56,909 nt of DNA, taken from NCBI GenBank assembly GCA_017454485.1, contig JAFTCX010000061.1:1-56909 (forward strand), in the 5' to 3' direction. The translations under genes were made by a program, and so were the position numbers. The notes below the pieces were generated by a model, which did not search any database, had not been told where the DNA came from, and saw only the letters and a program-made list of their open reading frames with translations. Origin of the DNA: Clostridia bacterium. GTDB taxonomy: Bacteria > Bacillota > Clostridia > Oscillospirales > Acutalibacteraceae. Below, piece by piece: positions 4,046-55,763 of the stretch (positions are counted from its first letter, which is position 1; the number at the start of each line of letters is the position of its first letter).

Positions 4046-5443
4046 ATGAAAAATTCCATGATTAAAAAACCCATCAGCATCCTTCTGTCCCTGCTCATGG
4101 TGCTGTCCGTCTTCGGCGGCATGGCGTTTACAGCAAGCGCGGAAAGCAGCGGCACCTATAACGGCTTCAGTTGGACACTTGGCGATGACGGCGCTTTGAG
4201 CATCACGGGCAGCGGCAGCATCGGCAGCAACGACCGGTGGCGCAGTAATGGCGAAATCACCAGCATTTCCGCCACCGGCGCGATCGAACAGATCGACAGA
4301 GACGCTTTCTTCGGCAACCAGAATGTGACATCCTACACCGTTGAAAGCACCACGGACCTCAAAATCAGCCAAGATGCGTTCTTTGTGTACCAAGGCTCAA
4401 AAATGGAAACAATCACCATTACCGCGCCGAAAATCACATTGACCAACAATCCGTATTATAACTATGATGAACCGATGGAGTTGATATTCAACGGAGATGT
4501 GTATTTGAACCCCGGTGCTTTTAGCGACATACTTACTTTGTCCGTACACTTCAACGACAACTTGTATGTAGTTATCCCGGCTGGTTACTATGTTTTCTCC
4601 GGCCCCGGAGCCGACGAACTGCAGAGTTGGTACAAAAGTATAGCAGAGGAACAGTTGAGCCATCCGGAACATCCGGACGATTATGAACAGCAATTGTCTG
4701 ATATCCTCGCCTATGCTGACGAACAGGGCTGCACCTATACGAAGTATGAAGAAGAAACCACGGAACTTGTCAACGAAGAAACCATCGGTCTGGTGTTTGG
4801 CAGCACGTATGTTGCGGCACAGCCGAACTGCGGTGCAAATGGCACCAAGGCGTATTATGTCGGAGCGGGTGTTTGGAACGACAGCGTCGGTGACTATGTC
4901 GATTCCTATTACTTGTATGAAAACGGAACCTACCGCTTAGTTACGGCTGACGACCTTGTGATGGCGCCCACCGGCGAACATGATTATACCGACGTCGAAT
5001 GGACGTTTTTTGATGCCGCGCGGCACGCACGCACCTGCACGGTCTGCGGCCAGACGGAATACGCAGCCCACGACGTGATCGTGAAGGGCGCAGGCGACGC
5101 AGATTGCACGAACGAGGGCTACACCGGCGACGAGTTCTGCTCCGTTTGCGGCGCAAAGCTGTCTGAAGGCACCATCATCCCGGCAAAGGGTCACACCACT
5201 GCGATCGTTGGCGCAAAAGAAGCGACCGCAACCGAAGACGGCTACACCGGCGATGAGGTTTGCACCGTTTGCGGCGAAACGATCAAGACCGGCAACGTGA
5301 TCCCTGCAACCGGCGAGCCTACACCCGATGAGCCGACCGACGAGCCGACCGACAACAACAAGGGCGGCAACGACTTCATCGGCAAGCTGTTCAACTGGCT
5401 GATTGAACTGTTCCGTATGTTCACCCGCTGGATTCAGAAATAA
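4046..5443 (+). CDS. Secreted BspA-like protein with CxxC repeats and amphipathic C-terminal tail
   Basis: Exported protein of unknown function, 465 aa. A signal peptide (about 1-31, ending TASAES) follows a clear aaaggaga ribosome site. The region YNGFSWTLGDDGALSITGSG and what follows resembles the start of BspA-type leucine-rich repeats (LRR_5 family). Residues 310-425 hold three CxxC-type units (CTVCGQTEY, CSVCGAKL, CTVCGETI). After a Pro/Thr/Asp linker the protein ends in an aromatic, amphipathic helix-like stretch, FIGKLFNWLIELFRMFTRWI. No LPXTG motif or typical membrane anchor is visible. It shares its CxxC repeat style and tail type with the giants at 42969-55763. A surface or adhesion role is inferred, not shown. 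Confidence 0.85.
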   Translation: MKNSMIKKPISILLSLLMVLSVFGGMAFTASAESSGTYNGFSWTLGDDGALSITGSGSIGSNDRWRSNGEITSISATGAIEQIDRDAFFGNQNVTSYTVESTTDLKISQDAFFVYQGSKMETITITAPKITLTNNPYYNYDEPMELIFNGDVYLNPGAFSDILTLSVHFNDNLYVVIPAGYYVFSGPGADELQSWYKSIAEEQLSHPEHPDDYEQQLSDILAYADEQGCTYTKYEEETTELVNEETIGLVFGSTYVAAQPNCGANGTKAYYVGAGVWNDSVGDYVDSYYLYENGTYRLVTADDLVMAPTGEHDYTDVEWTFFDAARHARTCTVCGQTEYAAHDVIVKGAGDADCTNEGYTGDEFCSVCGAKLSEGTIIPAKGHTTAIVGAKEATATEDGYTGDEVCTVCGETIKTGNVIPATGEPTPDEPTDEPTDNNKGGNDFIGKLFNWLIELFRMFTRWIQK

Positions 5444-25647: not shown

Positions 25648-25684
25648 CCTTAACGATTCTCTCCAATTGCAGGAGGCGATATTT

Positions 25685-26188
25685 ATGAAAAAAACAATAG
25701 CTTTGCTGCTTGCAACGCTGATGCTGATCTTCACGTTTGCCGTTTCGTTCGTTGTTTTTGCGGACGATACGCGCGTTGAGCTCAGCGAGAACCTCTGTGA
25801 GTTCTGTGGTCAGCCGCACACGTCTTATGACGAAGAAACCGGCACGATCGGTCTGTATTCCTGCAGATGCTGCCTGCAGTGCGACTATCTCGACAACACG
25901 GCGCTGACAAAATGCGCCAGAAACAACGAAGGTCATTACAGCGGCTTCAAATGCTGCAAGCAGTGCACCGGCTTCTTCCCGTGCCTTTGCAATGAAACGA
26001 ACCCCGATTGTGACTGCGTCTATTGCGGTGAAAAATCGCAGAAGCAGGATCAGGGCCCTGTGGAAGTGATTCCGCCGAAGGCGAAGAGCATCTTCAGCAA
26101 TGTTTTCACCAATGTCATGGGCAAGCTCTCCGAGGTGTTCACGAACCTTTTTAAAGTCATCTTCGCCATCTTCGGTGTGGAAGACTAA
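25685..26188 (+). CDS. Small secreted cysteine-rich protein with amphipathic tail
   Basis: 167 aa, unnamed family. Signal peptide about 1-26. The mature N-terminal half holds 15 cysteines in tight clusters (CEFCGQPH, SCRCCLQCDYL, KCCKQCTG, PCLC, DCDCVYCGE), a pattern suggesting metal binding or dense disulfides. After a QDQGP linker, the C-terminal 35 residues form a hydrophobic/aromatic amphipathic helix (AKSIFSNVFTNVMGKLSEVF, then TNLFKVIFAIFG). aggaggcg ribosome site. Likely in one operon with 25216-25647. The CxxC plus helical tail layout parallels the giant proteins at 42969-55763. Confidence 0.8.
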   Translation: MKKTIALLLATLMLIFTFAVSFVVFADDTRVELSENLCEFCGQPHTSYDEETGTIGLYSCRCCLQCDYLDNTALTKCARNNEGHYSGFKCCKQCTGFFPCLCNETNPDCDCVYCGEKSQKQDQGPVEVIPPKAKSIFSNVFTNVMGKLSEVFTNLFKVIFAIFGVED

Positions 26189-42968: not shown

Positions 42969-45900
42969 TTATCTTGCCTGAACCGCGTGGATGATCATGT
43001 GGATGAACGCCACGATCCAGCCGATGACCGGGGTGTTCTCCCATTTTTCGTTGATATCGCACCAGGAGCAGCGGCGCGGTGTGGTGGGCGTTGTGCCGCC
43101 GTTGCCGGAATCGTCCGTGGTGGGCTGATCGGTCGGGGTTTCCTCTTCGGGTTCGGTCACAGGGGCGCCGGTCGTCGTCATTGTGCCGAAGCCGCCGCTG
43201 CCCGTGCCGTCGAAGTAGTTGAACTTGCCGTAGGATTTGCCTGTGCCGTCGTCGCCGCTGTAGTTGACAGTCAGCTCATACGCGCCGTCGGTGAAGTGGG
43301 ACGTAAACGCAACCTTGCCCTCACTGTCGGTGACGCCCTCTTCGCTCATGTCGTTGCCGGTCAGGCGGACCTTTGCGCCGGAGAGTGCGACGCCTTTGTC
43401 GTTGCGCACATACGCGGTGAACAGCGTGTAGCTTCTGCCGCAGCCGAACGAGCAGGTATAGACATCCCACTGAACGGATTGGTCAAAGACGTGGCCGCTG
43501 GCCGCCTCGTCGCGCACATAGTTGTGATCGACGATCGGAAGCGTCTGTTCGCCCTGAATAAAGCCGCAAACAGAGCATTGCTCATACGCTGCGTAGCCGG
43601 GTTCGCTGCAGGTCGGCTCCTTGCCGTCCTTTGCAACAAACTTGTGACCCGGTGCGGTGCCGTTGAAGGTTTCGTCGCTCTTTGCGCCGCAAACGCAGCT
43701 CTTGACATAGGTCGGCGGGGTTGTGCAATCGCCCGCGTCAATCATAAACGCATCGGTTGCAACCTCGGTGAATTCATGCGCGGCCGCGTTGCCGTAGGTG
43801 CCGCAGTTGTAGGTGCAGGCAAAGGAATGCGTACCGTCACCGTTGTCCTTGATTTCGCCCTCAAAGATGTGCGCAAGCTGAGCAATCACGACGTCTGCGA
43901 TCTCGTTGTGGCTTTCGTCAAAGTCCTTGCCGCAAACGGAGCAGTGGTAGTGGCCGAGGCTGCCGGGCGCGGTGCAGGACGTTTCCACCGCGGGGATCCA
44001 GGCGCTGTAAGCGTGGCCGGGGGACGGAATGACGTAGGTTTCGATCTCTTGTTTTGCTTCGCTGAAGTACTTGTGGCAGATGGAGCACTGATAATAGGCG
44101 ACGTTGCCGTCGGTTGTGCACGTTTCGGAAACCGCAGCGTGCAGCTCGCCGTAATCGTGGCCGGACGCGGACGCAACGATGGAGGTGACTTCCTCTTTCG
44201 CTTCGTTGAAATACGTTTCGCAGACCGGGCAGTAGTAATACGCAATGTTGCCGTCTTCGGTGCAGGACGCTGCCGTTGCGGGCACAAGCTCGCCGTATTG
44301 GTGGCCGAGCGCTTCGCCGGTGATCACATCGTTCGTGGCGGTTTTATCGCCGTAGGTCGCCGTGTAGGTCGTGTACGGCGCATCCGCGCAGGTTGCAGCG
44401 TGGTCCTCATGCGTCATCTGCGCATCTTCATAGATCACGTGCGCGCCGTCGTTTGCGCAAACCAGCTTGGCCTGCGCCGTTGTGCCGTCCTGTGACCAGA
44501 CAAATTCGCTGAACGCATAGGCGTGGCCGGTGGCGGGTTCACCATCGATGCGGTTCGTATCGGTGTGACCGTCGTAGCTTGCAATGTAATCGGTGTAGCC
44601 CGCCGCTTCGCATTCCGGTGCGTGAACGTCGGGCGTGATCGCCGCGTCGTAATAGGTTACATGGTTTGCATCCTTGCCGCAGACATATTTTGCTTTTGCG
44701 GTTTTGCCGTCTTCTGCCCAGACGAATTCGCTGAACGCGTAGGTGTGGCCGGTGGCCGTGCCTTCGTCCGTTACAGTTTTGCTGTCGGTGTTCGTGCCGT
44801 AGGTCGCCGTGTAAACCGTGTAAGCGTCGTCTTCGCAGGTCGCGGCGGTGAACACGCTGGACATTTCAGCGTCCACTTGCGTCGTGTGGTTCGCGTCGTT
44901 TTCGCAAACGAGGTTCACCTTTGCGGTCTTGTTGTCCGCCGCCCATGTGAAGGAGACGAACTTCCAAGCGTGGTCGGTGGCCGTGCCCGCATCCGTCACG
45001 GTCTTGCTTTCGGTGTGATCACCGTAAGTCGCGGTATATACCGTGTAGGCGTCGGCGGTGCAGGTCGCGGCGGTGAACGCGCTGGACATCGTCGCGTCCA
45101 CCTGTTTCGTGTGGTTCGCGTCGTTTTCGCAAACAAGGTTGACTTTCGCGGTCTTGTTGTCCTCTGCCCAGGTGAAGGAGGCGAACTTCCAAGCGTGGTC
45201 GGTGGCTGTGCCTTCGTCCGTTACAGTCTTGCTGTCGGTGTTCGTGCCGTAAGTCGCGGTGTAAACCGTGTAGGCGTCGTCTTCGCAGGTCGCAGCCGTG
45301 AACGCGCTGGACATCGTCGCGTCTACTTGTGTTGTGTGGTTTCCGTCATTTTTGCAAACGAGGTTGACCTTCGCGGTCGTGTTGTCCGCAGCCCAGGCGA
45401 AGGAGGAGAACTGCCAGTTGTGATCGGTCGCCGTACCTTCGTCCGTCACGGTCTTGCTGTCGGTGTTTGTGCCGTAGGTCGCGGTGTAGACCGTGTAAGC
45501 GTCGTCGGTGCAGGTCGCAGCCGTGAACGCGCTGGACATCGTTGCATCCACCTGCTTCGTGTGGCTCGCTTCGTTTCCGCAAACGAGGTTGACCTTTGCG
45601 GTCTTGTTGTCCGCCGCCCATTCGAAGGAGACGAACTTCCAAGCGTGGTCGGTGGCTGTGCCTGCATCCGTCACAGTCTTGCTTTCGGTGTTCGTGCCGT
45701 AAGTCGCGGTGTAAACCGTGTAGGCGTCGTCGTCACAGGTCGCGGCGGTAAACGCGCTGGACATCGTCGCATCTACCTGCGTCGTGTGGCTGTTGTCATG
45801 GCCGCAGACGAGGTTCACTTGCGCGGTCGTGTTATCCGCAGCCCAAGCGAAGGAATCAAACCGCCAATCGTGCTCGAGGGCCGTGCCGGTATAGATGATC

Positions 45901-48557
45901 TGGGTCGTTGTGGTGTAGGTCGTGCCGTTATTCACAACGCTTGCGGTATAGACGGTGTAGCCGTCATGCTCGCAAACTGCGGCCGTATCAGCCGAGGTGA
46001 CCGTCACTTCCGGTGTGATCGTATGATCGCAGCCGTCGCACTTGAACGTTGCAGTGATCTTGTTGTCCGCCGTCCAGGTGCCCCAGGTGGGTTCGCCGGT
46101 GTAGGTGTGCGCGGTGATGGCGTTTGTGGCGTTGCAGTTTGCGCACTTGTTCCAGTGGTTATTATCGTCATATTGCGGAACGGTAAACTCGTGTGCGCCG
46201 GTCGCTTCAACCTCTTGGGTGTAGGTCGCGCCGCAGCCGTCCGTTTGGCAGGTATAGGTCTTCACGCCTGTGGTGGCGCAGCCGGGTTGCACGGTCACTT
46301 CGCCGCTGTTCCAGTTATGCGTCACAGCGCCGCCGTAGGTGCCGCAGCCGTTTTTGCAAAGGAAGGAGTGCGTTGCGTTTTGGCCGTTGCCGTCGCTTCT
46401 GACCGCGCCGGTGAAGTCGTGGCCACCCTCGGTGTCCACTGCGCCGTAGCTTTCGCCGCAGGTGGCGCAGGTTGCCCGTTTGGTGCAGGTCGCCGTGCCG
46501 CCGGAGCAGTCTTCCACACCGACGTTGACTTCCAGCTTGCCGCCGATCTTACCAGCCAAAATGCTGACCGTGGACTCGGTTTTGCCAAAGCTGAACGTGT
46601 AATCCGTGTCTTTCACCAGTGTCGTGCTGCCCGCCTTGACCGTGATGTTGTTCGTCAGGTGGTGATCTACTATGGGAGTCACTTTGATTGTAATTGCCGC
46701 CGCACCGTTCACGTTGGGCTGGTCGCCCGTTGTGTTGTCAGCGTAGTCAATCGTATAATTATCGCGGGTCCAGTTGGCGTAAAGCTGGATGGCCTTGTTC
46801 GTGCCGAGCTGGTTATACAAATTACTGCTCGTGAACGCGCCGTTTTTGTCAATAAACTGGACACCGGCGCCGCTCGGTCTTTCGTAATAGCCCTGGAAAG
46901 TATAGCCCACGCGGGTGGGAATGACGACAGAGGGCAAAGACGTTGCGCAGGCACTGTCGCTGTAGTAGCCGTTCTGCTGGTATTTATAATAGACCGTATC
47001 TGTGCCGCCGGTGCCATTGATTTTGTCGAGCGTGGCGGTGATTACATGCGGTGTCCACTGCGCCGTCATGGACGGTGAACCGAATTTTCCGGTCAGGGAC
47101 GTGTCCTTTGCGTAGGTTGTGGATGCAGACCAGTTGCCGACGTTTGCGGTCGGTTTCCAGCCGGAGAAGTCATAACCCGTCTTGGTGGAGCCGGGGAGCT
47201 TTGCTGTGCTTTCAATGTTATAGGTGGTGTTGCTGACTGCGCTGCCGCCGTCGGTGTCATAGGTGATGGTGTAATTTGTAGGCGTATAATAAGCGTATAG
47301 TTCGCCGGCAGCAAAGTCTGCAACATGAGCTGAGGTCCCATTCGCGTTGATATATTTGGTTCCTGCGCCGTTTGTGCCGGAATAGTAACCCTGAAAATCG
47401 TAGGCGGTCTTTGTGGGAGGCGTAATGGTCGGCATAGCGTTACCAACCGTCACGTTATACACGGTTGAAGTGGAAGAAGCAGGGGTTGAAGCATCCATCT
47501 GATTCAGGAAGGCCGCAGAAGTCGTGAACGGCGCAATCTTGCTGTCTTCATGCGCAAGACTGTAAAGGACAAAGCCGTTGCCGCCCGCCGTGCCGTGGCT
47601 GCCGCCACTGCCGCCGCTGGCGTTGCCATCAGACCAACCGCCGACGCTTCCGCCTTGACTTCCGGAGAGGCCGTTATCATTTCCGCCGCTGCCACCGTAG
47701 CCGATGGGGCACTGGCGTCCGGAACTCTTCCATCTGACGCCGCCAGAGGCGCCGCCGCCGCCACCGCCGCCCCCATAGCCGCCGCCGCCAACATTAGCGC
47801 CGGAAGAACCGGCACCACCGCCGCCACCGCCGCCGCCGCCGGAGGCATTATAGTTGAAACTCCAACCAGAACCGCTGTCATCGGCGCCGGAACCGCCGCT
47901 GCCGCCGCTGCCTCTTGCTCCGCCAGCGCCGCCCACTGCGTTCAACGAAATTGACGCGCCAAAGTATACGTTACCGCCTGCGCCGCCGTTGCCGCCCGTG
48001 CTTCCGCTTTTACCAGCGTTTGATTTGTGGTCATCTCTTTCGTCAACATCCTCGTCAGCATAAGCTTCAGTGGTTCCGCCGCCTGCGCCGCCTGCGCCGC
48101 CGTTGCCGCCGATGCCTGCGCCGCCGCCGCCGGCTCCTGTTCCGCCGGCACCGCCGGTTCCGCCGCGCCATCTTTCGCTGGATATGTTCACATAGCCATT
48201 CGAACCGTTGCCGCCGTTGCTGGCGCTGCCGCCGGCACCACCGTAAACGTTCAAAGTGCCGCTGCCGACAACGATTAAAGCTGATGATGTGGGAACATAA
48301 ATGCCGGACTTACCGCCCTGATTGGCTGAGCCCGCGCCGCCGTACACCGTCAGGGTGACACCGGCGGGAATGTGGATCGTTGCAACAGAATTGTTCGCAA
48401 CCACCAGACCGTTCTGGCCGGTTCCGGCGTTGATCGTCGTATTGCTCGAAACCGTGTAGATCGTGTCGTGGGAAAGGGTGCTTCCCGCAGCGGTTGGAAG
48501 GGCAGTCACGGTGACCGCCTGCCCGGCGTTCTTTGTTCCGCCAACATCATTATTCAC
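42969..48557 (-). CDS. Giant secreted repeat protein, C-terminal part (separated by in-frame stop)
   Basis: 1,862 codons. The only possible local start, a GTG at 48557, has no ribosome site, and the frame is open back to 48680 where it meets the TGA ending the N-terminal ORF in the same frame. It is therefore best seen as the body of one gene (42969-49337). In order: glycine-rich segment (about 105-330), InlB/Listeria-Bacteroides-type repeats (about 370-640, e.g. TKTGYDFSGWKP), CxxC units, seven ~75-aa repeats (about 877-1345, AWKFVSFEWAADNKTAKVNL type), more CxxC units (CPVCETYFNEAKEEV), a carboxypeptidase-regulatory-like domain (GVALSGAKVRLTGND), a Thr/Glu linker and the tail CSWC ... GWIVAFIHMIIHAVQAR. 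Likely a cell-surface protein; function unknown. Confidence 0.75.
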   Translation of the reverse strand: MNNDVGGTKNAGQAVTVTALPTAAGSTLSHDTIYTVSSNTTINAGTGQNGLVVANNSVATIHIPAGVTLTVYGGAGSANQGGKSGIYVPTSSALIVVGSGTLNVYGGAGGSASNGGNGSNGYVNISSERWRGGTGGAGGTGAGGGGAGIGGNGGAGGAGGGTTEAYADEDVDERDDHKSNAGKSGSTGGNGGAGGNVYFGASISLNAVGGAGGARGSGGSGGSGADDSGSGWSFNYNASGGGGGGGGGAGSSGANVGGGGYGGGGGGGGASGGVRWKSSGRQCPIGYGGSGGNDNGLSGSQGGSVGGWSDGNASGGSGGSHGTAGGNGFVLYSLAHEDSKIAPFTTSAAFLNQMDASTPASSTSTVYNVTVGNAMPTITPPTKTAYDFQGYYSGTNGAGTKYINANGTSAHVADFAAGELYAYYTPTNYTITYDTDGGSAVSNTTYNIESTAKLPGSTKTGYDFSGWKPTANVGNWSASTTYAKDTSLTGKFGSPSMTAQWTPHVITATLDKINGTGGTDTVYYKYQQNGYYSDSACATSLPSVVIPTRVGYTFQGYYERPSGAGVQFIDKNGAFTSSNLYNQLGTNKAIQLYANWTRDNYTIDYADNTTGDQPNVNGAAAITIKVTPIVDHHLTNNITVKAGSTTLVKDTDYTFSFGKTESTVSILAGKIGGKLEVNVGVEDCSGGTATCTKRATCATCGESYGAVDTEGGHDFTGAVRSDGNGQNATHSFLCKNGCGTYGGAVTHNWNSGEVTVQPGCATTGVKTYTCQTDGCGATYTQEVEATGAHEFTVPQYDDNNHWNKCANCNATNAITAHTYTGEPTWGTWTADNKITATFKCDGCDHTITPEVTVTSADTAAVCEHDGYTVYTASVVNNGTTYTTTTQIIYTGTALEHDWRFDSFAWAADNTTAQVNLVCGHDNSHTTQVDATMSSAFTAATCDDDAYTVYTATYGTNTESKTVTDAGTATDHAWKFVSFEWAADNKTAKVNLVCGNEASHTKQVDATMSSAFTAATCTDDAYTVYTATYGTNTDSKTVTDEGTATDHNWQFSSFAWAADNTTAKVNLVCKNDGNHTTQVDATMSSAFTAATCEDDAYTVYTATYGTNTDSKTVTDEGTATDHAWKFASFTWAEDNKTAKVNLVCENDANHTKQVDATMSSAFTAATCTADAYTVYTATYGDHTESKTVTDAGTATDHAWKFVSFTWAADNKTAKVNLVCENDANHTTQVDAEMSSVFTAATCEDDAYTVYTATYGTNTDSKTVTDEGTATGHTYAFSEFVWAEDGKTAKAKYVCGKDANHVTYYDAAITPDVHAPECEAAGYTDYIASYDGHTDTNRIDGEPATGHAYAFSEFVWSQDGTTAQAKLVCANDGAHVIYEDAQMTHEDHAATCADAPYTTYTATYGDKTATNDVITGEALGHQYGELVPATAASCTEDGNIAYYYCPVCETYFNEAKEEVTSIVASASGHDYGELHAAVSETCTTDGNVAYYQCSICHKYFSEAKQEIETYVIPSPGHAYSAWIPAVETSCTAPGSLGHYHCSVCGKDFDESHNEIADVVIAQLAHIFEGEIKDNGDGTHSFACTYNCGTYGNAAAHEFTEVATDAFMIDAGDCTTPPTYVKSCVCGAKSDETFNGTAPGHKFVAKDGKEPTCSEPGYAAYEQCSVCGFIQGEQTLPIVDHNYVRDEAASGHVFDQSVQWDVYTCSFGCGRSYTLFTAYVRNDKGVALSGAKVRLTGNDMSEEGVTDSEGKVAFTSHFTDGAYELTVNYSGDDGTGKSYGKFNYFDGTGSGGFGTMTTTGAPVTEPEEETPTDQPTTDDSGNGGTTPTTPRRCSWCDINEKWENTPVIGWIVAFIHMIIHAVQAR
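44525..45925 (-). repeat. 225-bp direct repeats within giant gene (seven 75-aa units)
   Basis: Start points of the recurring GAAGGAG...GAACT segment lie near 44950, 45175, 45400, 45625 and 45850, an exact 225-base step; two more diverged units lie toward 44525. The units encode HxWxFxSFxWAxDNxTAxVNLVC, then MSSAFTAATC and YTVYTATYG. High nucleotide identity makes recombination or misassembly possible here. Confidence 0.9.
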
Positions 48558-48680
48558 ATAACTGCCGTTGGATTGCCTCGTCCAATTTCCGGCGAATGCA
48601 TTTATGCTTTGTCCGTACCCGGAGCCCGAATTGTTCAGGTTATTCCAAGCGTAAATGTGAGTGGAATAACTTCCGCCTTC

Positions 48681-49337
48681 TCAGTGGTGATCGCTGTAGG
48701 GAACATAATACCTGTAGTTATAGGACTGACCGTTTACAGAATAGGAGCCGCGAACGCCGTCGTACCAGATCAGATCGTCCTGACCATTGTAAGAGGACCA
48801 GGTCGGGAACTGCATGGTCTGAACGGGGTAGTGGCTGGTGACCTGCGCGTAGACATAGTAGCCCCGCTTTGCGTCCCGCACATAGGTCGCACGGTCGATA
48901 GAGGGCGTTTGATTGATGGTATAAGAAGTTCCCGCAAAGCTACTCCACGAAGTGCCATTGCCCTCTCCGTAAACATGGGTGATATAAGTGCCGCCCTCAT
49001 TGTTGTGATCGCTGAGCGGAAAAGTTACAGCATAGTTATAATAGTGACCGCCAAGATTCCAATCTCCGCGCCAGCCGGTATACCAAATCAAATCATCCTG
49101 ACCATTTGCGTTCGTCCAAGTTGGAAACTGAACCTTGGTCAGGTTATTATTGCTGTTATAGGTGTACACAGCGACCGTGCCGCCGCTATCATAAACCTCT
49201 ACACAAATTGAACTATCGCAAACAAGCAAAACTGCGTCTGCTTTCACAGGTGCAACGAACACCCACGCGCTCATGACCATCAGCACAGTCATCAGCACAG
49301 CGAGCGGTCGCCGCAGGTTGATTGATTTGTGTTTCAT
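48681..49337 (-). CDS. Giant secreted repeat protein, N-terminal part ending at in-frame TGA
   Basis: 218 codons. Signal peptide (LMTVLMVMSAWVFVAPVKA), then two GBS Bsp-like repeats: VQFPTWTNANGQDDLIWYTG and MQFPTWSSYNGQDDLIWYDG. Repeat 1 continues SDHNNEGGTYITHVY; repeat 2 reads SDHH, then TGA (48683-48681), then EGGSYSTHIYA in the same frame. The stop thus replaces a conserved Asn/Asp position in the middle of the second repeat. ATG at 49337 follows aaggagg and a promoter. As it stands, translation would yield a short secreted fragment without the C-terminal tail. A sequencing error, a recent nonsense mutation or readthrough are all possible. Confidence 0.85.
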   Translation of the reverse strand: MKHKSINLRRPLAVLMTVLMVMSAWVFVAPVKADAVLLVCDSSICVEVYDSGGTVAVYTYNSNNNLTKVQFPTWTNANGQDDLIWYTGWRGDWNLGGHYYNYAVTFPLSDHNNEGGTYITHVYGEGNGTSWSSFAGTSYTINQTPSIDRATYVRDAKRGYYVYAQVTSHYPVQTMQFPTWSSYNGQDDLIWYDGVRGSYSVNGQSYNYRYYVPYSDHH

Positions 49338-49379
49338 AGAAAAAACCCTCCTTATAATTGTATAAATTTATACATATTT

Positions 49380-49408
49380 ATTTTATAACGTTTCGCGCTG
49401 TTTTGCAA
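49380..49408 (-). promoter_or_regulatory. Promoter of minus-strand giant gene
   Basis: Minus strand TTGCAA (49408-49403), 17-base spacer and TAAAAT (49385-49380). Confidence 0.65.
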
Positions 49409-49548
49409 TCGTGCTTTTCAATAAAAAATGTGTGATCGGTTTGTCTATTTTTACAATATACAATTATATATATTCCAAATCGGAATCATCTGCTCTTTTT
49501 TGCACAAAACGGAGCCTGTTTTTTTGTGTATGTTTTCAAAAAAATTGC
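49409..49548. other. AT-rich divergent intergenic region
   Basis: AT-rich, unlike the surrounding genes, between the two giant-gene promoters. It contains a small perfect inverted repeat, ATTCC-aaatc-GGAAT (49472-49486), which could be an operator; this is speculative. No gene was seen. Confidence 0.4.
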
Positions 49549-49577
49549 TTGACGTTTTTGTCTTTTTCATGTAGAAT
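49549..49577 (+). promoter_or_regulatory. Promoter of plus-strand giant gene
   Basis: TTGACG (49549-49554), 17-base spacer and TAGAAT (49572-49577). Confidence 0.75.
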
Positions 49578-49634
49578 AATCATGTAGGAATCTATAACCC
49601 GCAATATAAACATATGTTTGCAGGAGGTATTTTT

Positions 49635-52600
49635 ATGGTAAGCAAAATCAAACGCGGATCGCGGCGCTGTTTTGCGGTCGCACTTTCGGTGCTCATGCTC
49701 TTGAGCGCCTGGGTGTTCGTTGCGCCGGAGAAAGCAGCAGCAGCGGCGGTAAAGTACACATGGCGTGTTTACGTGTATTCCAGAAATGACACCGGAGGCT
49801 GGAATAGTGAACAAATGATTGTCAGGGGCAAGCCAAACAATGGCACCGGGTCGCAGTCAGATCTTCTTACGGTTAATAACTGGAAAATTGATTTCAACGG
49901 AGAGAGAACCAACACTTTTGGTAAAGGTGACCAAACGACGAGTCAGTTCCCGACGCAGCTATATTACTACTACAGTTTCGGCGGCGGTTGGACAAAGAGA
50001 AAGATCGACGCGGATATTTACTTGCAGTTATATTATAATGGTGATTGGCATACGATTGCAGGCGGTAATGTATATTCCAACAATAGCGGGACCAATAAAG
50101 GCAGCAAAACGTGGGATGTACCTGCGGATAAATATCCCAAAGAACAGTTAAATGCAATCTCCGGCGGCACATCATCTGTTAGTGTGCCGACGGATGGAAC
50201 AACGACAAATAAAACTGACGCGTTCACGCTTCCGAATACCGGTACAACGTATTCTGCAGGAAACGATGTTGCAGTTTATGATCAGTATGGCATTCAGTGG
50301 TATCAGAATGCCAGTTATAAAGTTGACAGTCATACAGGTGTATCTTTGACATCGGATAAAAAAGTTGCTGTGACACACACTGCGAACGCCAAGGAAAATT
50401 ACGATGTGTATGTCAGGCAATATCTTGGCGGCACGGAAAAGAGCTCTTCAAAAGTTACCGTCAAAACCTTTGATTACAAGGTTCAATGGTTTGACGAAAA
50501 TGGAACAACAAGCCTTGGTACGAATACAGTGGATTATGGCGACAGTGCAACGCCGCCTTCTCCGACAAAGGATCCAGACGCAACAAACCACTATGCGTTT
50601 AAATCGTGGGTCGCTATGGATTCGGATACCAGCTATTCTACGATTAAGACGGGCGCACAAACAAGGAGATTTAAAGCCAGCTACACAGCCACGGCGCATA
50701 GCGTGCAGTCGGATTATTCCCAAAATGCTGATGAGCACTGGAAGAAGTGTACGGTATGCGGTTATACCACATGGGGTCCGAACAGCCACACACCGAAGAG
50801 TACTTTTGAGACGAATTCCTCTCAGCACTGGAAGCTTTGCTCCACTTGTGGCAGAGAAATCACAGGCTCCAGAGGCGCCCATACCGCGAGCGGCTGGAAG
50901 CACGATGCGGATGGCGACTGGAAAGAATGTACCACCTGTAAATATTATACGACCGCTAAGACAGCGCACACATGGAAATATGATGAAGCTGTGTTCAACT
51001 GGTCTGATTATGAGTGTGAAACCGCAACGTTGACCTGCTCCAAGTGCGGCAGAACCAAAACGGTGAATACGACGGTTTCCGTTGTCAACACACCTTCCAC
51101 CTGCGAAGTCGGCGGCAGCAATGTTTATACCGCATCCTTTACAGATGGCGGTACGACGAAGACAGCGACTAAGACTGAACAGCTTGACCCGCTCGGTCAT
51201 AACTACACCGGCGCATATCACGCGCTGGCCGACAACAAACACAACCGCGCTTGCGTCAACAGTTGCAACTGCGGCACGTTCGGCTTGAACGGTGAAAAGA
51301 ATGCGTCCGAAGCCTGTACGCCGGCTGACAACTTTGTTGTCGCTGATTACTTGAAGGACGAGAATGAGCACTGGGTCAAATGTCAGTATTGCGACAACTT
51401 GACGTTGAACAAGACCGGCCACGAATGGGATTATGCAAACGCAGTGTTCAACTGGGACGGCTATGCATGCCCGAACGCGACGGTAACCTGCCCGATCTGC
51501 GAACAAACGAAAACGATTACAACAACCGTATCAAATGAAATTACCGTTCCGACAGCGTGCTTAACAGACGGAACCAAGGTCTATACCGCAAAGTTTACTG
51601 TGGGTGGAACCGACTATACCGGAACGAAAGAGGAGGTCCTCGGAAAGCTCGGCCACGATTGGGGAACTGTGACGTACACATGGAGTGCGGAAAATGATTC
51701 TGTGACTGCAAGACGCGAGTGCGCACGTTGCCATGCTGTTGAAACAGAACAGAAAGGTACCACGAATGTAGTCACCGTGATTCCGACTTGTACCACAGAA
51801 GGTGAGCGCGTTTTCACAAGCGCTGAATTTGAAAACGAAGCGTTCGAAGTGCAAACGAAGCCCGTCACTCTTGCAGAAGACCTCGACAACCACGACTTCA
51901 CCGTGCAAAACGACGGTGCGGCATATTTGAAGAGTGCCGCGACCTGCGAAGACAACGAGGTTTACTATCTCAAGTGCTCCCGCTGCGAAAAATGCACCAA
52001 CGACAATAAGGTGAACAGCGACGGCACTTACGGCGGCGCGACTTGGACGAAGGAAAATACCGCGCTCGGTCACGAATTCACCGGTGAAGCTGTCAACGCC
52101 GCAGCCGACAAGCACTTCTATAAGTGTGTACGCTTTGATGATTGCGAATCCTACGGTGTGAAGAAGGACGGCGTTTGGACAAAGAACGCAACTGAGAGCT
52201 GCTCCGGCGGCGAAGCGACCTGCACGGATAAAGCGGTCTGCGACAAGTGCAGAACTGTATACGGCAGCAGAGATCCTGACAATCACAAGTTCACTTCGGA
52301 AAGCACCGCGGCGACCTATCTGAAGACGGCCGCAACCTGCGAAGACGACGCTGTATACTATTACAAGTGCGAACGCTGCACAAAGAGCACCAATGACGAT
52401 AAGGTGAACGGAGAAGGCACCTATGGCGGCGCCTATTGGACCAAAACCGGTACCGCCAGGGGTCATAAGTATACCGGCGATTACAACGCGCTTGTGGTAG
52501 ACGGTGAACTCAAGCACAACCGCGCCTGCCTCAACGGCTGCGGAACCTTCGGCCTTGTGGTGGACGGCGTTCAGAAGAAGAACGCTTCCGAAGCCTGTAC

Positions 52601-55600
52601 GGCGGGCGATATGCAGTATGATGAAACCGGCCACTGGGTACAGTGCGTCTACTGCAGCAACTACACCACGCCGAAAGCGCAGCACGATTCCGTCAGTGAC
52701 ACCCCGTACACCACGGATAACAACCAGCACTGGAAGAACTGCTCCGTCTGCGGATGGTTCATTGAAGCGGCGGGCGACCACAGTTTAGAATGGGTTGTTG
52801 ACAGGGAAGCGACCTGCACCGAGGACGGCCTTCGTCACAGAGAGTGCCCGGTCTGCCACCTGAAGAAGCAGGAAGGCACAGTCATTCCGAAGCTCGACCA
52901 CGATTGGAGCGATGTGACCTACACCTGGAATGAGGATAACACCCAGGTCACGGCAACGCGTACCTGCAAGCGTGATGCGAACCATGTGGAAACCGAAACC
53001 GTTGCTGTCAGCAAGACAACCAAGAATCCGACCTGCGTTGCAACAGGCTCCATCACTTACACGAGCAAGAGCTTCACAAACAGTGCATTCACCGTTCAGG
53101 CGAAAACAGTGACGCTCGAGATCAATCCGCTGAACCACAACAACAAGATCGGTCCCGTTGCGCTCAAGAAAGCGACCTGCACCGTGGACGGCGTGAAAGC
53201 GCACTACTACTGCTCGGCGTGTAAGAAGAACTTCTCCGATGCTGACGGCACAGAGGTGGTCAGCGAAGAAGATCTGAAAATCACCGCGCGCGGTCACGCT
53301 TGGGACGAAGGCACTGTCACAAAGGAAGCGACCTGCGCCGCACCCGGCGTTATGACATACAAGTGCCAGAACACCACAGCGACAGAGTTCTATGCGGCAT
53401 GTCACGAATCTTACACCGAAGAGATCGAGATCAACCCGGCGAACCATGACGGACATCTCGTTTATGTGGAAATCGTGAAGGCAAGCTGCTTCGCACCCGG
53501 CGTGAAAGCGCATTGGTACTGCGACGCCTGCAACACGAAGTTCAGCGATGAACAAGGCACGCAGGCAACCACGGATGAAGCGCTGGCGATTGCGCAGCGT
53601 GCACACGTTTGGGACGAAGGCACTGTCACGAAGGAAGCGACCTGCGCCGAGACCGGTTTGAAGGTTTACACCTGCACCTGTGCGGCAGACGATGAACACG
53701 TTGCCTGCACCGAGACAAAGGAAGAAACCCTTGAAAAGGACGCAAACAACCATGTCGGCGTGATCGATCCCGAAAACATGAGCGAACTTCGGAATTACGT
53801 CCGTGAGAGCTGCTCGGCTCCCGGCTATTCCGGCGACCGCTACTGCCTTGGCTGCGGTGAACTGCTTGAGCAGGGTCATGATATTCCGAAGCAGCCGCAC
53901 ACCTACACGGCGGAAGATATTAACGTTGAAAACGCGTTCGTGAGCGCTGCAACCTGCGTCAGCCCGGCGATCTATGTCAAGAGCTGTACGTACTGCGGCA
54001 AGCTGGATGACGACAGAACCAACACCTTCACCTACGGCGAAATCAATCCCGCAAACCATGCGCAGGAACTGACCTTCACCGAGTATAAAGCTGCGACCTG
54101 CCTTGCCGACGGTAACGAAGCGTATTACACCTGCCCGGCGTGTACGTTCAACTTCTCCGATGCAGCCGGTCTTGACAAGATGGACAACGTAGTGATCGCC
54201 CAGCTTGCGCACAGCTACACCGGCGAAGCAGCCGATCAGGGCGACGGCACCCACAAGTGCCTGTGCGTCAACGGCTGCAACGAATACGGCCCGGCAGTTG
54301 AACACACCTGGAGCGAACCGACGACGGTTGAACCGACCTGCACCAAGGACGGCTCCGCCGATTACACCTGCACAGCGCCTGGCTGCGCGGCAACGAAGCA
54401 CGATGTGCTGCAGAAGCTCGGCCACGACTGGCAGAAGCCGACCTATAAGTGGGCGGATGATTGCTCCTATTGTATCGGTACAAAGATTTGCGCGAATGAC
54501 CTCAAGGGCGACGGCACCGCAGATCACACCATCACCGAAAAGGTGGAAAACATTGTTCGCACATCACCCGAACAGCCGACTTGCCAGAAGGGCGGCAGAT
54601 ATGTTTACACTGCGACCTTCACCAATTCGGCGTTCACCGAACAGTACACCTCCGAAGTCATCCCGATGGGCACACATGTGCTTGTGAAGATCGACGCGGT
54701 TGCGCCGACCTGCTCCGAGGACGGCAGCATCCAATACTGGATCTGCTCCGCCTGCCGCCACTACTTCTCAGATGCTCAAGGCGTCAACGAGATCACGCTG
54801 GCCTCCACCTTCGTTCCCAGAGTCGGCCACGATTACAGCGGCGCGGTGAAGGACAACAAGGACGGCACGCACAGCTACGCCTGCATCTATGAATGCGGCT
54901 CCTACGGCAAGAAGAGTGCGCACGCGTTCAACCGCGAAATTGCAAGCGATCAATACCTTGACGTTGCAAGCGACTGCGTGACACCGGCCACCTACTTCTA
55001 TAGCTGCGAATGCGGCGCCAAGGGCACCAGCACCTTTGAAGGCACCCCGCTCGGCCACAACTTCGTGGATCACGAGGGCAAAGACCCGACCTGCACCGAA
55101 CCCGGTTACACGGCACACAAGGCCTGCACACGCTGCGATGCAACGGAAGGCAAGAGCGAAATCCTCGCGCTTGGCCACGGCAAATATCTGTTCGATCATG
55201 AAAGATCCGGCAGAGTGTATGACGGTTCCTTCGAATGGGCGACCTATAGCTGCTCAAGAGGCTGCGGCGACAGCTACACCTTGTTCACGATCCATGCCAA
55301 GGATGCCAACGGCAAGCCGATCGTCGGCGCGAATGTCACGATCGATGACGGCAACGGAACAACAGCGACCGGCATCACCGGCAACGACGGTTCCTTCACG
55401 TCTGACGTCCATTTCCAAGACGGTGAATACAAGGTCAGCATGAGCTACACCAGCGGCGATTCCGTGATGACCACCAGCGGCGACGTTCGCGTGGTCGGCG
55501 GTAAGGGCAGCGGCGGAACCGGCGCTCTGGTGCCGACCAACTCCGGCGATTCCTCCGGCTCCGGTTCGGGCTCCGGCTCCGGTTCCGGCTCGACCACACC

Positions 55601-55763
55601 GACGAATCCGTCCGGTGGTAATTCCGGCGGAAACTCCGGCGGTTCCGGTGACTCTTCCGGCTCCTCCGGCGCCTGCCGTTATTGCGGCGAGACGCACAGC
55701 GGACCATTCGGCTGGCTGATTCAGCTTATCCACAACATCCTGGCTGCCTTCAGTGGCAAATAA
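49635..55763 (+). CDS. Giant secreted CxxC-repeat protein with amphipathic C-terminal tail
   Basis: 2,042 aa, function unknown. Start at 49635 follows AGGAGG by seven bases; an earlier in-frame start at 49614 precedes that site. Signal peptide core LSVLMLLSAWVFVAPEKA nearly matches the divergent giant. Residues 35-275 are an unrecognised beta-rich region; 275-355 an InlB-like repeat (VDYGDSATPPSPTKDPDATN); 355-1865 a long array with about twenty CxxC pairs in units such as HWKKCTVCGYTT and YYCSACKKNFSDADGTEV, often followed by GH or NH motifs; 1884-1960 a carboxypeptidase-regulatory-like domain (GKPIVGANVTIDDGNGTTAT); a Ser/Gly linker; then CRYCGETHSGP and GWLIQLIHNILAAFSGK. No LPXTG. Zinc binding by the CxxC units and a surface location are inferred. 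Confidence 0.9.
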   Translation: MVSKIKRGSRRCFAVALSVLMLLSAWVFVAPEKAAAAAVKYTWRVYVYSRNDTGGWNSEQMIVRGKPNNGTGSQSDLLTVNNWKIDFNGERTNTFGKGDQTTSQFPTQLYYYYSFGGGWTKRKIDADIYLQLYYNGDWHTIAGGNVYSNNSGTNKGSKTWDVPADKYPKEQLNAISGGTSSVSVPTDGTTTNKTDAFTLPNTGTTYSAGNDVAVYDQYGIQWYQNASYKVDSHTGVSLTSDKKVAVTHTANAKENYDVYVRQYLGGTEKSSSKVTVKTFDYKVQWFDENGTTSLGTNTVDYGDSATPPSPTKDPDATNHYAFKSWVAMDSDTSYSTIKTGAQTRRFKASYTATAHSVQSDYSQNADEHWKKCTVCGYTTWGPNSHTPKSTFETNSSQHWKLCSTCGREITGSRGAHTASGWKHDADGDWKECTTCKYYTTAKTAHTWKYDEAVFNWSDYECETATLTCSKCGRTKTVNTTVSVVNTPSTCEVGGSNVYTASFTDGGTTKTATKTEQLDPLGHNYTGAYHALADNKHNRACVNSCNCGTFGLNGEKNASEACTPADNFVVADYLKDENEHWVKCQYCDNLTLNKTGHEWDYANAVFNWDGYACPNATVTCPICEQTKTITTTVSNEITVPTACLTDGTKVYTAKFTVGGTDYTGTKEEVLGKLGHDWGTVTYTWSAENDSVTARRECARCHAVETEQKGTTNVVTVIPTCTTEGERVFTSAEFENEAFEVQTKPVTLAEDLDNHDFTVQNDGAAYLKSAATCEDNEVYYLKCSRCEKCTNDNKVNSDGTYGGATWTKENTALGHEFTGEAVNAAADKHFYKCVRFDDCESYGVKKDGVWTKNATESCSGGEATCTDKAVCDKCRTVYGSRDPDNHKFTSESTAATYLKTAATCEDDAVYYYKCERCTKSTNDDKVNGEGTYGGAYWTKTGTARGHKYTGDYNALVVDGELKHNRACLNGCGTFGLVVDGVQKKNASEACTAGDMQYDETGHWVQCVYCSNYTTPKAQHDSVSDTPYTTDNNQHWKNCSVCGWFIEAAGDHSLEWVVDREATCTEDGLRHRECPVCHLKKQEGTVIPKLDHDWSDVTYTWNEDNTQVTATRTCKRDANHVETETVAVSKTTKNPTCVATGSITYTSKSFTNSAFTVQAKTVTLEINPLNHNNKIGPVALKKATCTVDGVKAHYYCSACKKNFSDADGTEVVSEEDLKITARGHAWDEGTVTKEATCAAPGVMTYKCQNTTATEFYAACHESYTEEIEINPANHDGHLVYVEIVKASCFAPGVKAHWYCDACNTKFSDEQGTQATTDEALAIAQRAHVWDEGTVTKEATCAETGLKVYTCTCAADDEHVACTETKEETLEKDANNHVGVIDPENMSELRNYVRESCSAPGYSGDRYCLGCGELLEQGHDIPKQPHTYTAEDINVENAFVSAATCVSPAIYVKSCTYCGKLDDDRTNTFTYGEINPANHAQELTFTEYKAATCLADGNEAYYTCPACTFNFSDAAGLDKMDNVVIAQLAHSYTGEAADQGDGTHKCLCVNGCNEYGPAVEHTWSEPTTVEPTCTKDGSADYTCTAPGCAATKHDVLQKLGHDWQKPTYKWADDCSYCIGTKICANDLKGDGTADHTITEKVENIVRTSPEQPTCQKGGRYVYTATFTNSAFTEQYTSEVIPMGTHVLVKIDAVAPTCSEDGSIQYWICSACRHYFSDAQGVNEITLASTFVPRVGHDYSGAVKDNKDGTHSYACIYECGSYGKKSAHAFNREIASDQYLDVASDCVTPATYFYSCECGAKGTSTFEGTPLGHNFVDHEGKDPTCTEPGYTAHKACTRCDATEGKSEILALGHGKYLFDHERSGRVYDGSFEWATYSCSRGCGDSYTLFTIHAKDANGKPIVGANVTIDDGNGTTATGITGNDGSFTSDVHFQDGEYKVSMSYTSGDSVMTTSGDVRVVGGKGSGGTGALVPTNSGDSSGSGSGSGSGSGSTTPTNPSGGNSGGNSGGSGDSSGSSGACRYCGETHSGPFGWLIQLIHNILAAFSGK

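What the first reader, a model, noticed from the sequence alone, without database searches (positions are those of the whole stretch)
42969..55763. Divergent pair of giant secreted proteins sharing a signal peptide, CxxC arrays and a novel-looking C-terminal tail
Seen: two ~2,000-codon genes read outward from one AT-rich region. Signal peptides share SAWVFVAP. Both end with a carboxypeptidase-regulatory-like domain, a flexible linker, a CxxC pair (CSWC; CRYC) and a matched amphipathic tail (GWIVAFIHMIIHAVQAR; GWLIQLIHNILAAFSGK). No LPXTG, SLH, choline-binding or LysM motif is visible. Inference: the CxxC plus GW..xIHxI..A tail may be an undescribed surface-retention signal, with an unknown partner, and the pair may form a co-regulated surface structure.
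Basis: partly seen in the sequence, partly recalled or inferred. Interest (0 to 1): 0.8.

Follow-up and report, generated by a model that had tools for sequence, protein, structure and literature searches.

The report
Swappable surface-anchor tails on secreted proteins
A group of rumen bacteria puts the same short tail, a pair of cysteines and histidines followed by a greasy one-sided helix, on dozens of unrelated secreted proteins, probably to keep them at the cell surface, and close relatives use a different tail of the same build.

Summary
The + strand tail (type A: CxYCGxxHxG..G..I.ffH.IL..F) gives 31 profile matches in this genome. In 24 of 26 loci read out it lies at the C terminus, on unrelated secreted domains. 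The - strand tail is another type (B). Relatives use type C (C.C.CH-helix-C.CG..HY) and a type D without knuckle. In this rumen Ruminococcaceae genus 10 of 34 genomes have 15-39 type A and 1-4 type C matches; the other 24 have 0-2 and 3-24. Eight of the ten are in a Clp-protein tree and group together. Related upstream domains carry different tails. All four types look like amphipathic helices. In 4 of 4 secreted phosphoesterases the type A motif sits just after the signal peptide; 11 of 11 relatives without a signal peptide lack it. That argues against a cleaved C-terminal signal. Best reading: an uncleaved module, a metal-binding Cys/His knuckle plus in-plane amphipathic helix, holding secreted proteins at the membrane, as the PBP5 helix does. 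Metal, membrane binding and any partner are inferred.

The parts
49635..55763 (+). giant secreted protein, 2042 aa (2049 aa from 49614): signal peptide, Cys/His repeat array, CarboxypepD_reg/Ig-like domain, Gly/Ser/Asn linker, type A tail
49635..49745 (+). signal peptide (approximate; by eye)
   Evidence: sequence printed
55299..55475 (+). CarboxypepD_reg-like domain (Pfam E 6e-6, below the curated cut-off)
55674..55760 (+). type A tail CRYCGETHSGPFGWLIQLIHNILAAFSGK
42969..49337 (-). second giant secreted protein; one frame broken by a single in-frame TGA
49239..49337 (-). signal peptide of the - strand gene (approximate; by eye)
48681..48683 (-). in-frame TGA stop between the signal peptide/GBS_Bsp-like part and the rest
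48927..49178 (-). GBS_Bsp-like repeat (Pfam PF08481, best stretch)
42972..43070 (-). type B tail CSWCDINEKWENTPVIGWIVAFIHMIIHAVQAR
49338..49634 (.). AT-rich divergent spacer (71% AT)
5369..5440 (+). amphipathic-looking C-terminal tail without knuckle (type D-like), NDFIGKLFNWLIELFRMFTRWIQK, of another secreted protein in the window (4046-5443)

Best explanation
The tail is a portable, uncleaved surface-retention module of about 30-40 residues. A Cys/His knuckle (type A: C1, C4, H8, H20; type B: C1, C4, H24, H28; type C: a C.C.CH cluster plus C.CG..H) probably holds a metal ion, most likely zinc, and fixes the start or end of an amphipathic helix. After Sec export the helix lies in the outer face of the cytoplasmic membrane and holds the protein there, while long linkers and repeat arrays carry the working domains (lectins, peptidoglycan hydrolases, proteases, LRR and giant repeat proteins) outward. 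Supported by computation: the modular distribution, the link to signal peptides, the Cys/His pattern, the amphipathicity, different tail types on related domains, and tolerance of an N-terminal position. Inferred: metal binding, the membrane as target, absence of cleavage.
For: Distribution: 239 matches to the type A profile in 10 genomes of the genus, some type B included. Of 60 fetched hits, the better-scoring ones (21 of 26 in G004, 28 of 34 in G019, 10 of 21 in G001, 1 of 39 in G020), the motif starts within 41 residues of the stop in 60 of 60. Signal-peptide heuristic: 45 of the 54 whose upstream frame is not cut by the fetched stretch. Of the nine misses, three continue upstream in another frame (L158, L166, L181), three are 34-48-codon remnants (L149, L162, L200), three are unresolved (L143, L188, L195). 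Type C: 40 fetched of 272 matches; 40 of 40 start within 51 residues of the stop, signal peptide in 37 of 37 uncut frames. Architectures: M6, Lectin_C, CHAP, RicinB, transglutaminase, GH25, Metallophos, LRR_5, Peptidase_C1; type C: LRR_5, DUF6273, Lectin_C, rhamnosidase, Metallophos and others. Swap: relatives of the CarboxypepD-like end of the plus protein carry type A, B, or, in two weak matches (L124, L141), type C; L278 (C) and L189 (A) are 49% identical over 346 aa from residue 3. Helix: column hydrophobicity peaks at 100 degrees in 4 of 4 types (type D from 4 sequences), permutation p 0.0002-0.0024. Ligands: helix His 16-17 residues after C4 in 90 of 91 type A tails; His four residues later in 0 of 91 of A but in 13 of 13 rows of the B alignment. 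Position: 4 of 4 secreted phosphoesterases have the full motif just after the signal peptide, 11 of 11 relatives without a signal peptide lack it.
Against: No structure could be predicted (tool off), and no metal or membrane test was possible. Types A and B are hydrophobic enough that some could span the membrane (best Kyte-Doolittle window of 19 at 1.6 or more in 30 of 91 A and 12 of 17 B, but 1 of 39 C and 0 of 4 D). The A-rich genomes group together in the tree (8 of 10 placed), so co-occurrence arguments may rest on a single event. Few sampled genomes outside the genus have it, which is odd for a generic membrane helix and could point to a lineage-specific partner. The CxxC and H8 counts are biased because profile and pattern were built on them. 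The signal-peptide heuristic is loose: 9 of 30 other window ORFs also pass.
Confidence: 0.5

Rival explanations
1. A processed C-terminal sorting signal like MYXO-CTERM or LPXTG: an enzyme cleaves near the cysteines and joins the protein to lipid or wall.
For: Signature with cysteines, then a hydrophobic stretch, often ending in basic residues, on dozens of secreted proteins; the MYXO-CTERM abstract describes an invariant Cys, TM helix and Arg-rich end (PMC11980579 abstract). Many-or-few distribution in the genus.
Against: 4 of 4 secreted phosphoesterases carry the motif N-terminal to their catalytic domain with the same C, C, H, H spacing, so cutting there would release the enzyme. A helix His is conserved. 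The helix is amphipathic in all types, and types C and D mostly fall short of membrane-spanning hydrophobicity. No enzyme was looked for genome-wide, so its absence is not shown.
Confidence: 0.2
2. A docking module: the knuckle plus helix binds a protein receptor at the surface, as a dockerin binds a cohesin.
For: Enzymes, lectins and proteases share one module; it is found at either end; helix His and neighbouring positions are strongly conserved; narrow taxonomic range in the samples; two or more types in one genome could address two receptors.
Against: No receptor candidate seen, though none was searched for. Type D lacks the knuckle yet sits on the same kind of secreted protein. Lone tailed proteins occur in A-poor genomes. 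The tails are single 30-40 residue units, unlike the duplicated calcium-binding repeats of dockerins (recalled definition).
Confidence: 0.25
3. No targeting role: a small zinc or disulfide module spread by domain duplication in paralogous secreted proteins.
For: The window proteins and many relatives also carry CxxC repeat arrays, and recombination among them would spread a common 3' end; orphan tail fragments exist.
Against: It sits on unrelated domains (GH25, Lectin_C, M6, LRR), keeps its anatomy across types, is abundant where type C is scarce, and is missing from related proteins without a signal peptide.
Confidence: 0.05

Closest known systems
C-terminal amphipathic membrane anchor of PBP5 (DacA), E. 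coli
   Same: Exported enzyme attached to the membrane by a short C-terminal amphipathic helix; the form lacking the last 18 residues is soluble (PMC2909392, passages only).
   Different: No Cys/His knuckle is mentioned in the passages read; it anchors one enzyme family, not dozens of unrelated proteins; here the module can also be N-terminal and comes in exchangeable types.
MYXO-CTERM / myxosortase (MrtX)
   Same: Short C-terminal tag with invariant cysteine, hydrophobic helix and basic end on dozens of secreted proteins (PMC11980579, abstract and outline).
   Different: That tag has a transmembrane helix and is cleaved; here the helix is amphipathic, histidines are conserved, and 4 proteins carry the motif near the N terminus.
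LPXTG / sortase signals
   Same: C-terminal tag, hydrophobic stretch, basic end (PMC5817068, passages only).
   Different: No C-terminal LPxTG or NPxT in the window pair; the signature is Cys/His based.
C2H2 zinc fingers
   Same: Type B has C-x2-C ... H-x3-H with the histidines on the predicted helix.
   Different: 19 residues between C4 and the first His against about 12 in the classical finger (recalled); hydrophobic helix; secreted; no PDB sequence match at E<=10.

Membership tests
LPXTG/sortase substrates | C-terminal LPXTG-like motif before a hydrophobic stretch | tested here: not met
   window pair only (one internal LPxTG at residue 199 of the plus protein)
MYXO-CTERM | invariant Cys motif, hydrophobic helix, basic end at the extreme C terminus | tested here: inconclusive
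   anatomy similar, but amphipathic and near the N terminus in 4 phosphoesterases
MYXO-CTERM | cleavage by a CPBP-family protease | not tested
PBP5-like monotopic anchor | amphipathic helix at the end of an exported protein | tested here: met
   by sequence only:
PBP5-like monotopic anchor | membrane fraction and loss of it on deletion | not testable with these tools
   needs experiment
C2H2 zinc finger | two Cys and two His conserved as ligands, with helix | tested here: inconclusive
   pattern met in types A and B; spacing differs; metal not tested; no meaningful PDB sequence match
any Pfam-A / NCBIfam model | score above curated cut-off | tested here: not met
   24 type A tails and 1 type B tail: (best E 0.24 and 0.077, unrelated families); 8 type C tails, Pfam only: (none at E<=1); types B (12 further rows) and D not scanned

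The most novel reading that the evidence does not exclude
A new class of surface targeting in Clostridia: position-independent, uncleaved, metal-clipped amphipathic anchors in interchangeable types, where one clade has replaced the ancestral type C by type A across much of its surface proteome, as if the whole set of surface proteins had been re-addressed, perhaps together with a co-evolving receptor or a change of envelope.
Probability: 0.35. Interest if true: 0.85.

Novelty: new variant of a known kind. Interest (0 to 1): 0.7.

Why it matters
If the reading is right, a defined 30-40 residue module explains how dozens of exported proteins per genome, many of them very large and without a recognised anchor, are kept at the surface of these rumen Clostridia. 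It gives a sequence rule to predict surface proteins and a fusion tag to test. The contrast between type A and type C within one genus is unusual and can be tested directly.

Tried and rejected
Considered the tail as a cleaved sorting signal; not first choice because of the N-terminal copies. Considered it specific to orthologues of the window pair; rejected. Considered the two window tails as one motif; rejected. Looked for the tails in Pfam and NCBIfam; in the PDB by sequence (only Sec61 gamma hits over 11 positions for type A, E 1.2 to 5.7; none for B and C); in plasmids (type C: none) and phages (type C: one record; type A: none). One viral-contig scan gave no relative, one gave a single locus. 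Literature: the searches aimed at these tails or at such signals list no paper that, by title and start of abstract, describes them; one search looked for six sequence strings in 5.39 million open papers and found 0. Searches were for comparison systems. Papers other than PMC11980579 (abstract, outline), PMC2909392 and PMC5817068 (passages) were seen as listings only. The order and phylum searches scored at most about 20 candidates per genome, so absence there is weak evidence. A partner gene was not found: the phosphoesterase family occurs in exactly the 10 A-rich genomes, but any clade-specific gene would. The rank test of type C counts (p 1e-5) treats genomes as independent, which they are not.
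Full report
What is there. The window ends with two giant secreted-protein genes that read away from an AT-rich spacer (49338-49634, 71% AT). The plus gene (49635 or 49614 to 55763) is intact. The minus gene (49337 to 42969) is one frame with a single in-frame TGA at 48681-48683, so in this assembly it is broken, or the base is an error. In G019 contig 12 the same divergent pair is found: the minus relative has an open frame of 2199 codons with a SAWVFVAP signal peptide and a type B tail (79% identical over residues 429-1862 of my 1862-aa piece); the plus relative is 84% identical over residues 518-2042 and has the type A tail, but its open frame shows no signal peptide at its start, so its 5' end is unresolved. 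Promoter-like sites in the spacer region are at chance level.

The plus tail is a genome-wide module. The 29-residue tail alone finds 27 places in the 2.42-Mb genome, its own included; a 25-row profile (24 type A, 1 type B) finds 31 at E<=0.01, the window's type B tail among them. I read out the 26 loci other than the window's own: in 24 the motif starts within 37 residues of the stop; T07 has 62 residues after it, close to a contig end; T23 has it near the N terminus. A signal-peptide heuristic is met by 25 of 26 (T04 is cut by its contig end, and the start chosen for T06 is doubtful). The heuristic is loose: 9 of 30 other window ORFs pass, some of them membrane proteins by my reading. Pfam on 24 of these 26 proteins and three window pieces gives unrelated domains: Peptidase_M6, Lectin_C, CHAP, ricin lectin, transglutaminase, GH25, Metallophos, LRR_5, Peptidase_C1, Flg_new; five of the 24 have no family at E<=0.001 (T04 and T06 not scanned). 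No Pfam or NCBIfam model matches the 25 tails better than E 0.07.

Taxon. Named relatives with the tail are rumen MAGs (RUG series) called Ruminococcaceae bacterium RUG11928, RUG13829 and RUG13427, and uncultured Clostridia bins. Equal contig lengths indicate that G004 and G019 are RUG11928 and RUG13829. In the genus, 10 of 34 genomes have 15 to 39 matches to the type A profile and 24 have 0 to 2, some of those few being other tail types. In samples of the order and phylum, 1 of 393 and 0 of 397 other genomes matched at E<=1e-4, with limited sensitivity.

More tail types. The minus tail belongs to type B, with C1, C4, P14, H24 and H28 invariant in 13 rows. Relatives of the end region of the window proteins (query without the tail) carry type A or type B tails, and L124 and L141, weaker matches that cover the CarboxypepD-like part, carry a third type, C: C.C.CH, an amphipathic stretch, then C.CG..HY or a variant. 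Other type C proteins in that list (L125, L126, L129) match mainly in the Cys/His repeats. Type C is in 34 of 34 genomes of the genus, 1 to 4 matches in the A-rich and 3 to 24 in the others. In a tree of a Clp ATPase from 30 of the 34 genomes, the 8 A-rich genomes present (G001 and G010 are missing) lie on one side of a branch (support 99/97; unrooted). So type A probably expanded once, in a group where type C is scarce. Forty type C loci were fetched of 272 matches, mostly from G017 (14) and G030 (17): in 40 of 40 the motif starts within 51 residues of the stop, and 37 of 37 with an uncut frame pass the signal-peptide heuristic. They too carry varied domains (35 of the 40). Several are homologous to type A proteins outside the tail, for instance L278 and L189, 49% over 346 aa (many weaker matches there reflect the shared Cys/His repeats). 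A type D without the knuckle occurs on a GH3-like protein (L220, my reading), on L078, L081 and L086 (these have a CxxC a dozen residues upstream) and, in this window, on the secreted protein at 4046-5443.

Common anatomy. Column hydrophobicity in the tail helix peaks at 100 degrees in types A, B, C and D (permutation p 0.001, 0.0002, 0.0016, 0.0024; type D from 4 sequences). Single tails reach the top 5% of their own shuffles in 61 of 72, 15 of 17, 31 of 38 and 4 of 4. Net charge is positive on average. Types C and D are mostly too polar for a normal membrane span; A and B are borderline. Types A and B each keep two Cys and two His, but the fourth one moves: H8 in the loop in A, a second helix His in B. 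His four residues after the helix His is seen in 0 of 91 unique A tails and in all 13 B rows. H8 was part of the pattern used, so its 91 of 91 is not evidence; the helix His at 16 or 17 after C4 in 90 of 91 was free to vary in the pattern, though not in the profile that found most of them. Type C repeats the C.CG..H knuckle of type A on the other side of the helix. This looks like one metal site plus one amphipathic helix, built in several ways. Metal is inferred.

A natural test of processing. T23 is a secreted calcineurin-like phosphoesterase (Pfam Metallophos) with the type A motif directly after the signal peptide and before the enzyme. At E<=1e-12 its family is found in exactly the 10 A-rich genomes. 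All 4 members with a signal peptide (G000, G001, two in G020; 50-51% identical to T23) keep the motif, helix His included, in that place, and 11 of 11 examined members without a signal peptide lack it anywhere in their frame (three partial matches were not examined). So the module goes with export, occurs at either end, and need not be cleaved.

Mechanism. The simplest model is an uncleaved in-plane membrane anchor, as reported for the C-terminal helix of PBP5 (PMC2909392, passages), with a metal knuckle as a clip. Rivals are a processed signal like MYXO-CTERM (PMC11980579, abstract) and a dockerin-like docking module. The narrow range in the samples and the contrast between A-rich and A-poor genomes keep the docking idea alive. 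I found no partner and tested no candidate enzyme or receptor family.

Outside the genus. A type C tail ends a 1235-aa protein with a signal peptide (by eye) and Cys/His repeats at the very end of an Oscillospirales phage record from human feces (PV036458.1). It may be a phage-carried surface gene or host flank. One similar IMG/VR contig was found, possibly the same virus. G050, another family of the order, has one related tail.

Novelty. I know of no description of these tails, and the aimed literature searches list none. As a kind, surface retention by a terminal tag is known; the uncleaved, position-independent, Cys/His-bearing, exchangeable form is not, as far as I could search. I therefore file it as a new variant of a known kind.

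Noticed in passing
window 48681-48683 (-): Single in-frame TGA splits the minus-strand giant gene after the GBS_Bsp-like part; a near relative has an open frame.
   Followed up: partly
window 4046-5443 (+): Another secreted protein of the window ends in an amphipathic-looking tail without knuckle, after a Pro/Thr/Asp/Glu linker.
   Followed up: partly
window 25667-26188 (+): Small secreted protein with a cluster of cysteines followed by a long, amphipathic-looking C terminus.
   Followed up: no
L149, L162, L200, L181 (G004, G001, G019): Short open frames of 34-48 codons that hold little more than a type A tail; L181 is the 3' end of a frame-disrupted relative of T05/L153, the others look like orphan tail remnants.
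   Followed up: partly
L311 (PV036458.1 71605-75312): Gene at the end of an Oscillospirales phage record encodes a secreted-looking protein with a type C tail: possible lysogenic conversion or host flank.
   Followed up: partly
L305, L298, L299 and others: A phosphoesterase family, most members without signal peptide, found only in the 10 A-rich genomes of the 34 in the genus; a clade marker or a possible partner.
   Followed up: partly
L208, L209 (G006, G005): Lone type A tails in otherwise A-poor genomes sit on an alkaline-phosphatase-like hydrolase (my reading of the sequence).
   Followed up: no
L054 (G050, another family of the order): A related tail CSYCGQVHPKTFVGFLIYIFHMLASIIQ after a Cys/His repeat array.
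   Followed up: no
L314 (G019 contig 12, 22866 onward): The plus relative's open frame begins without a signal peptide, in Arg-rich residues that look out of frame.
   Followed up: no
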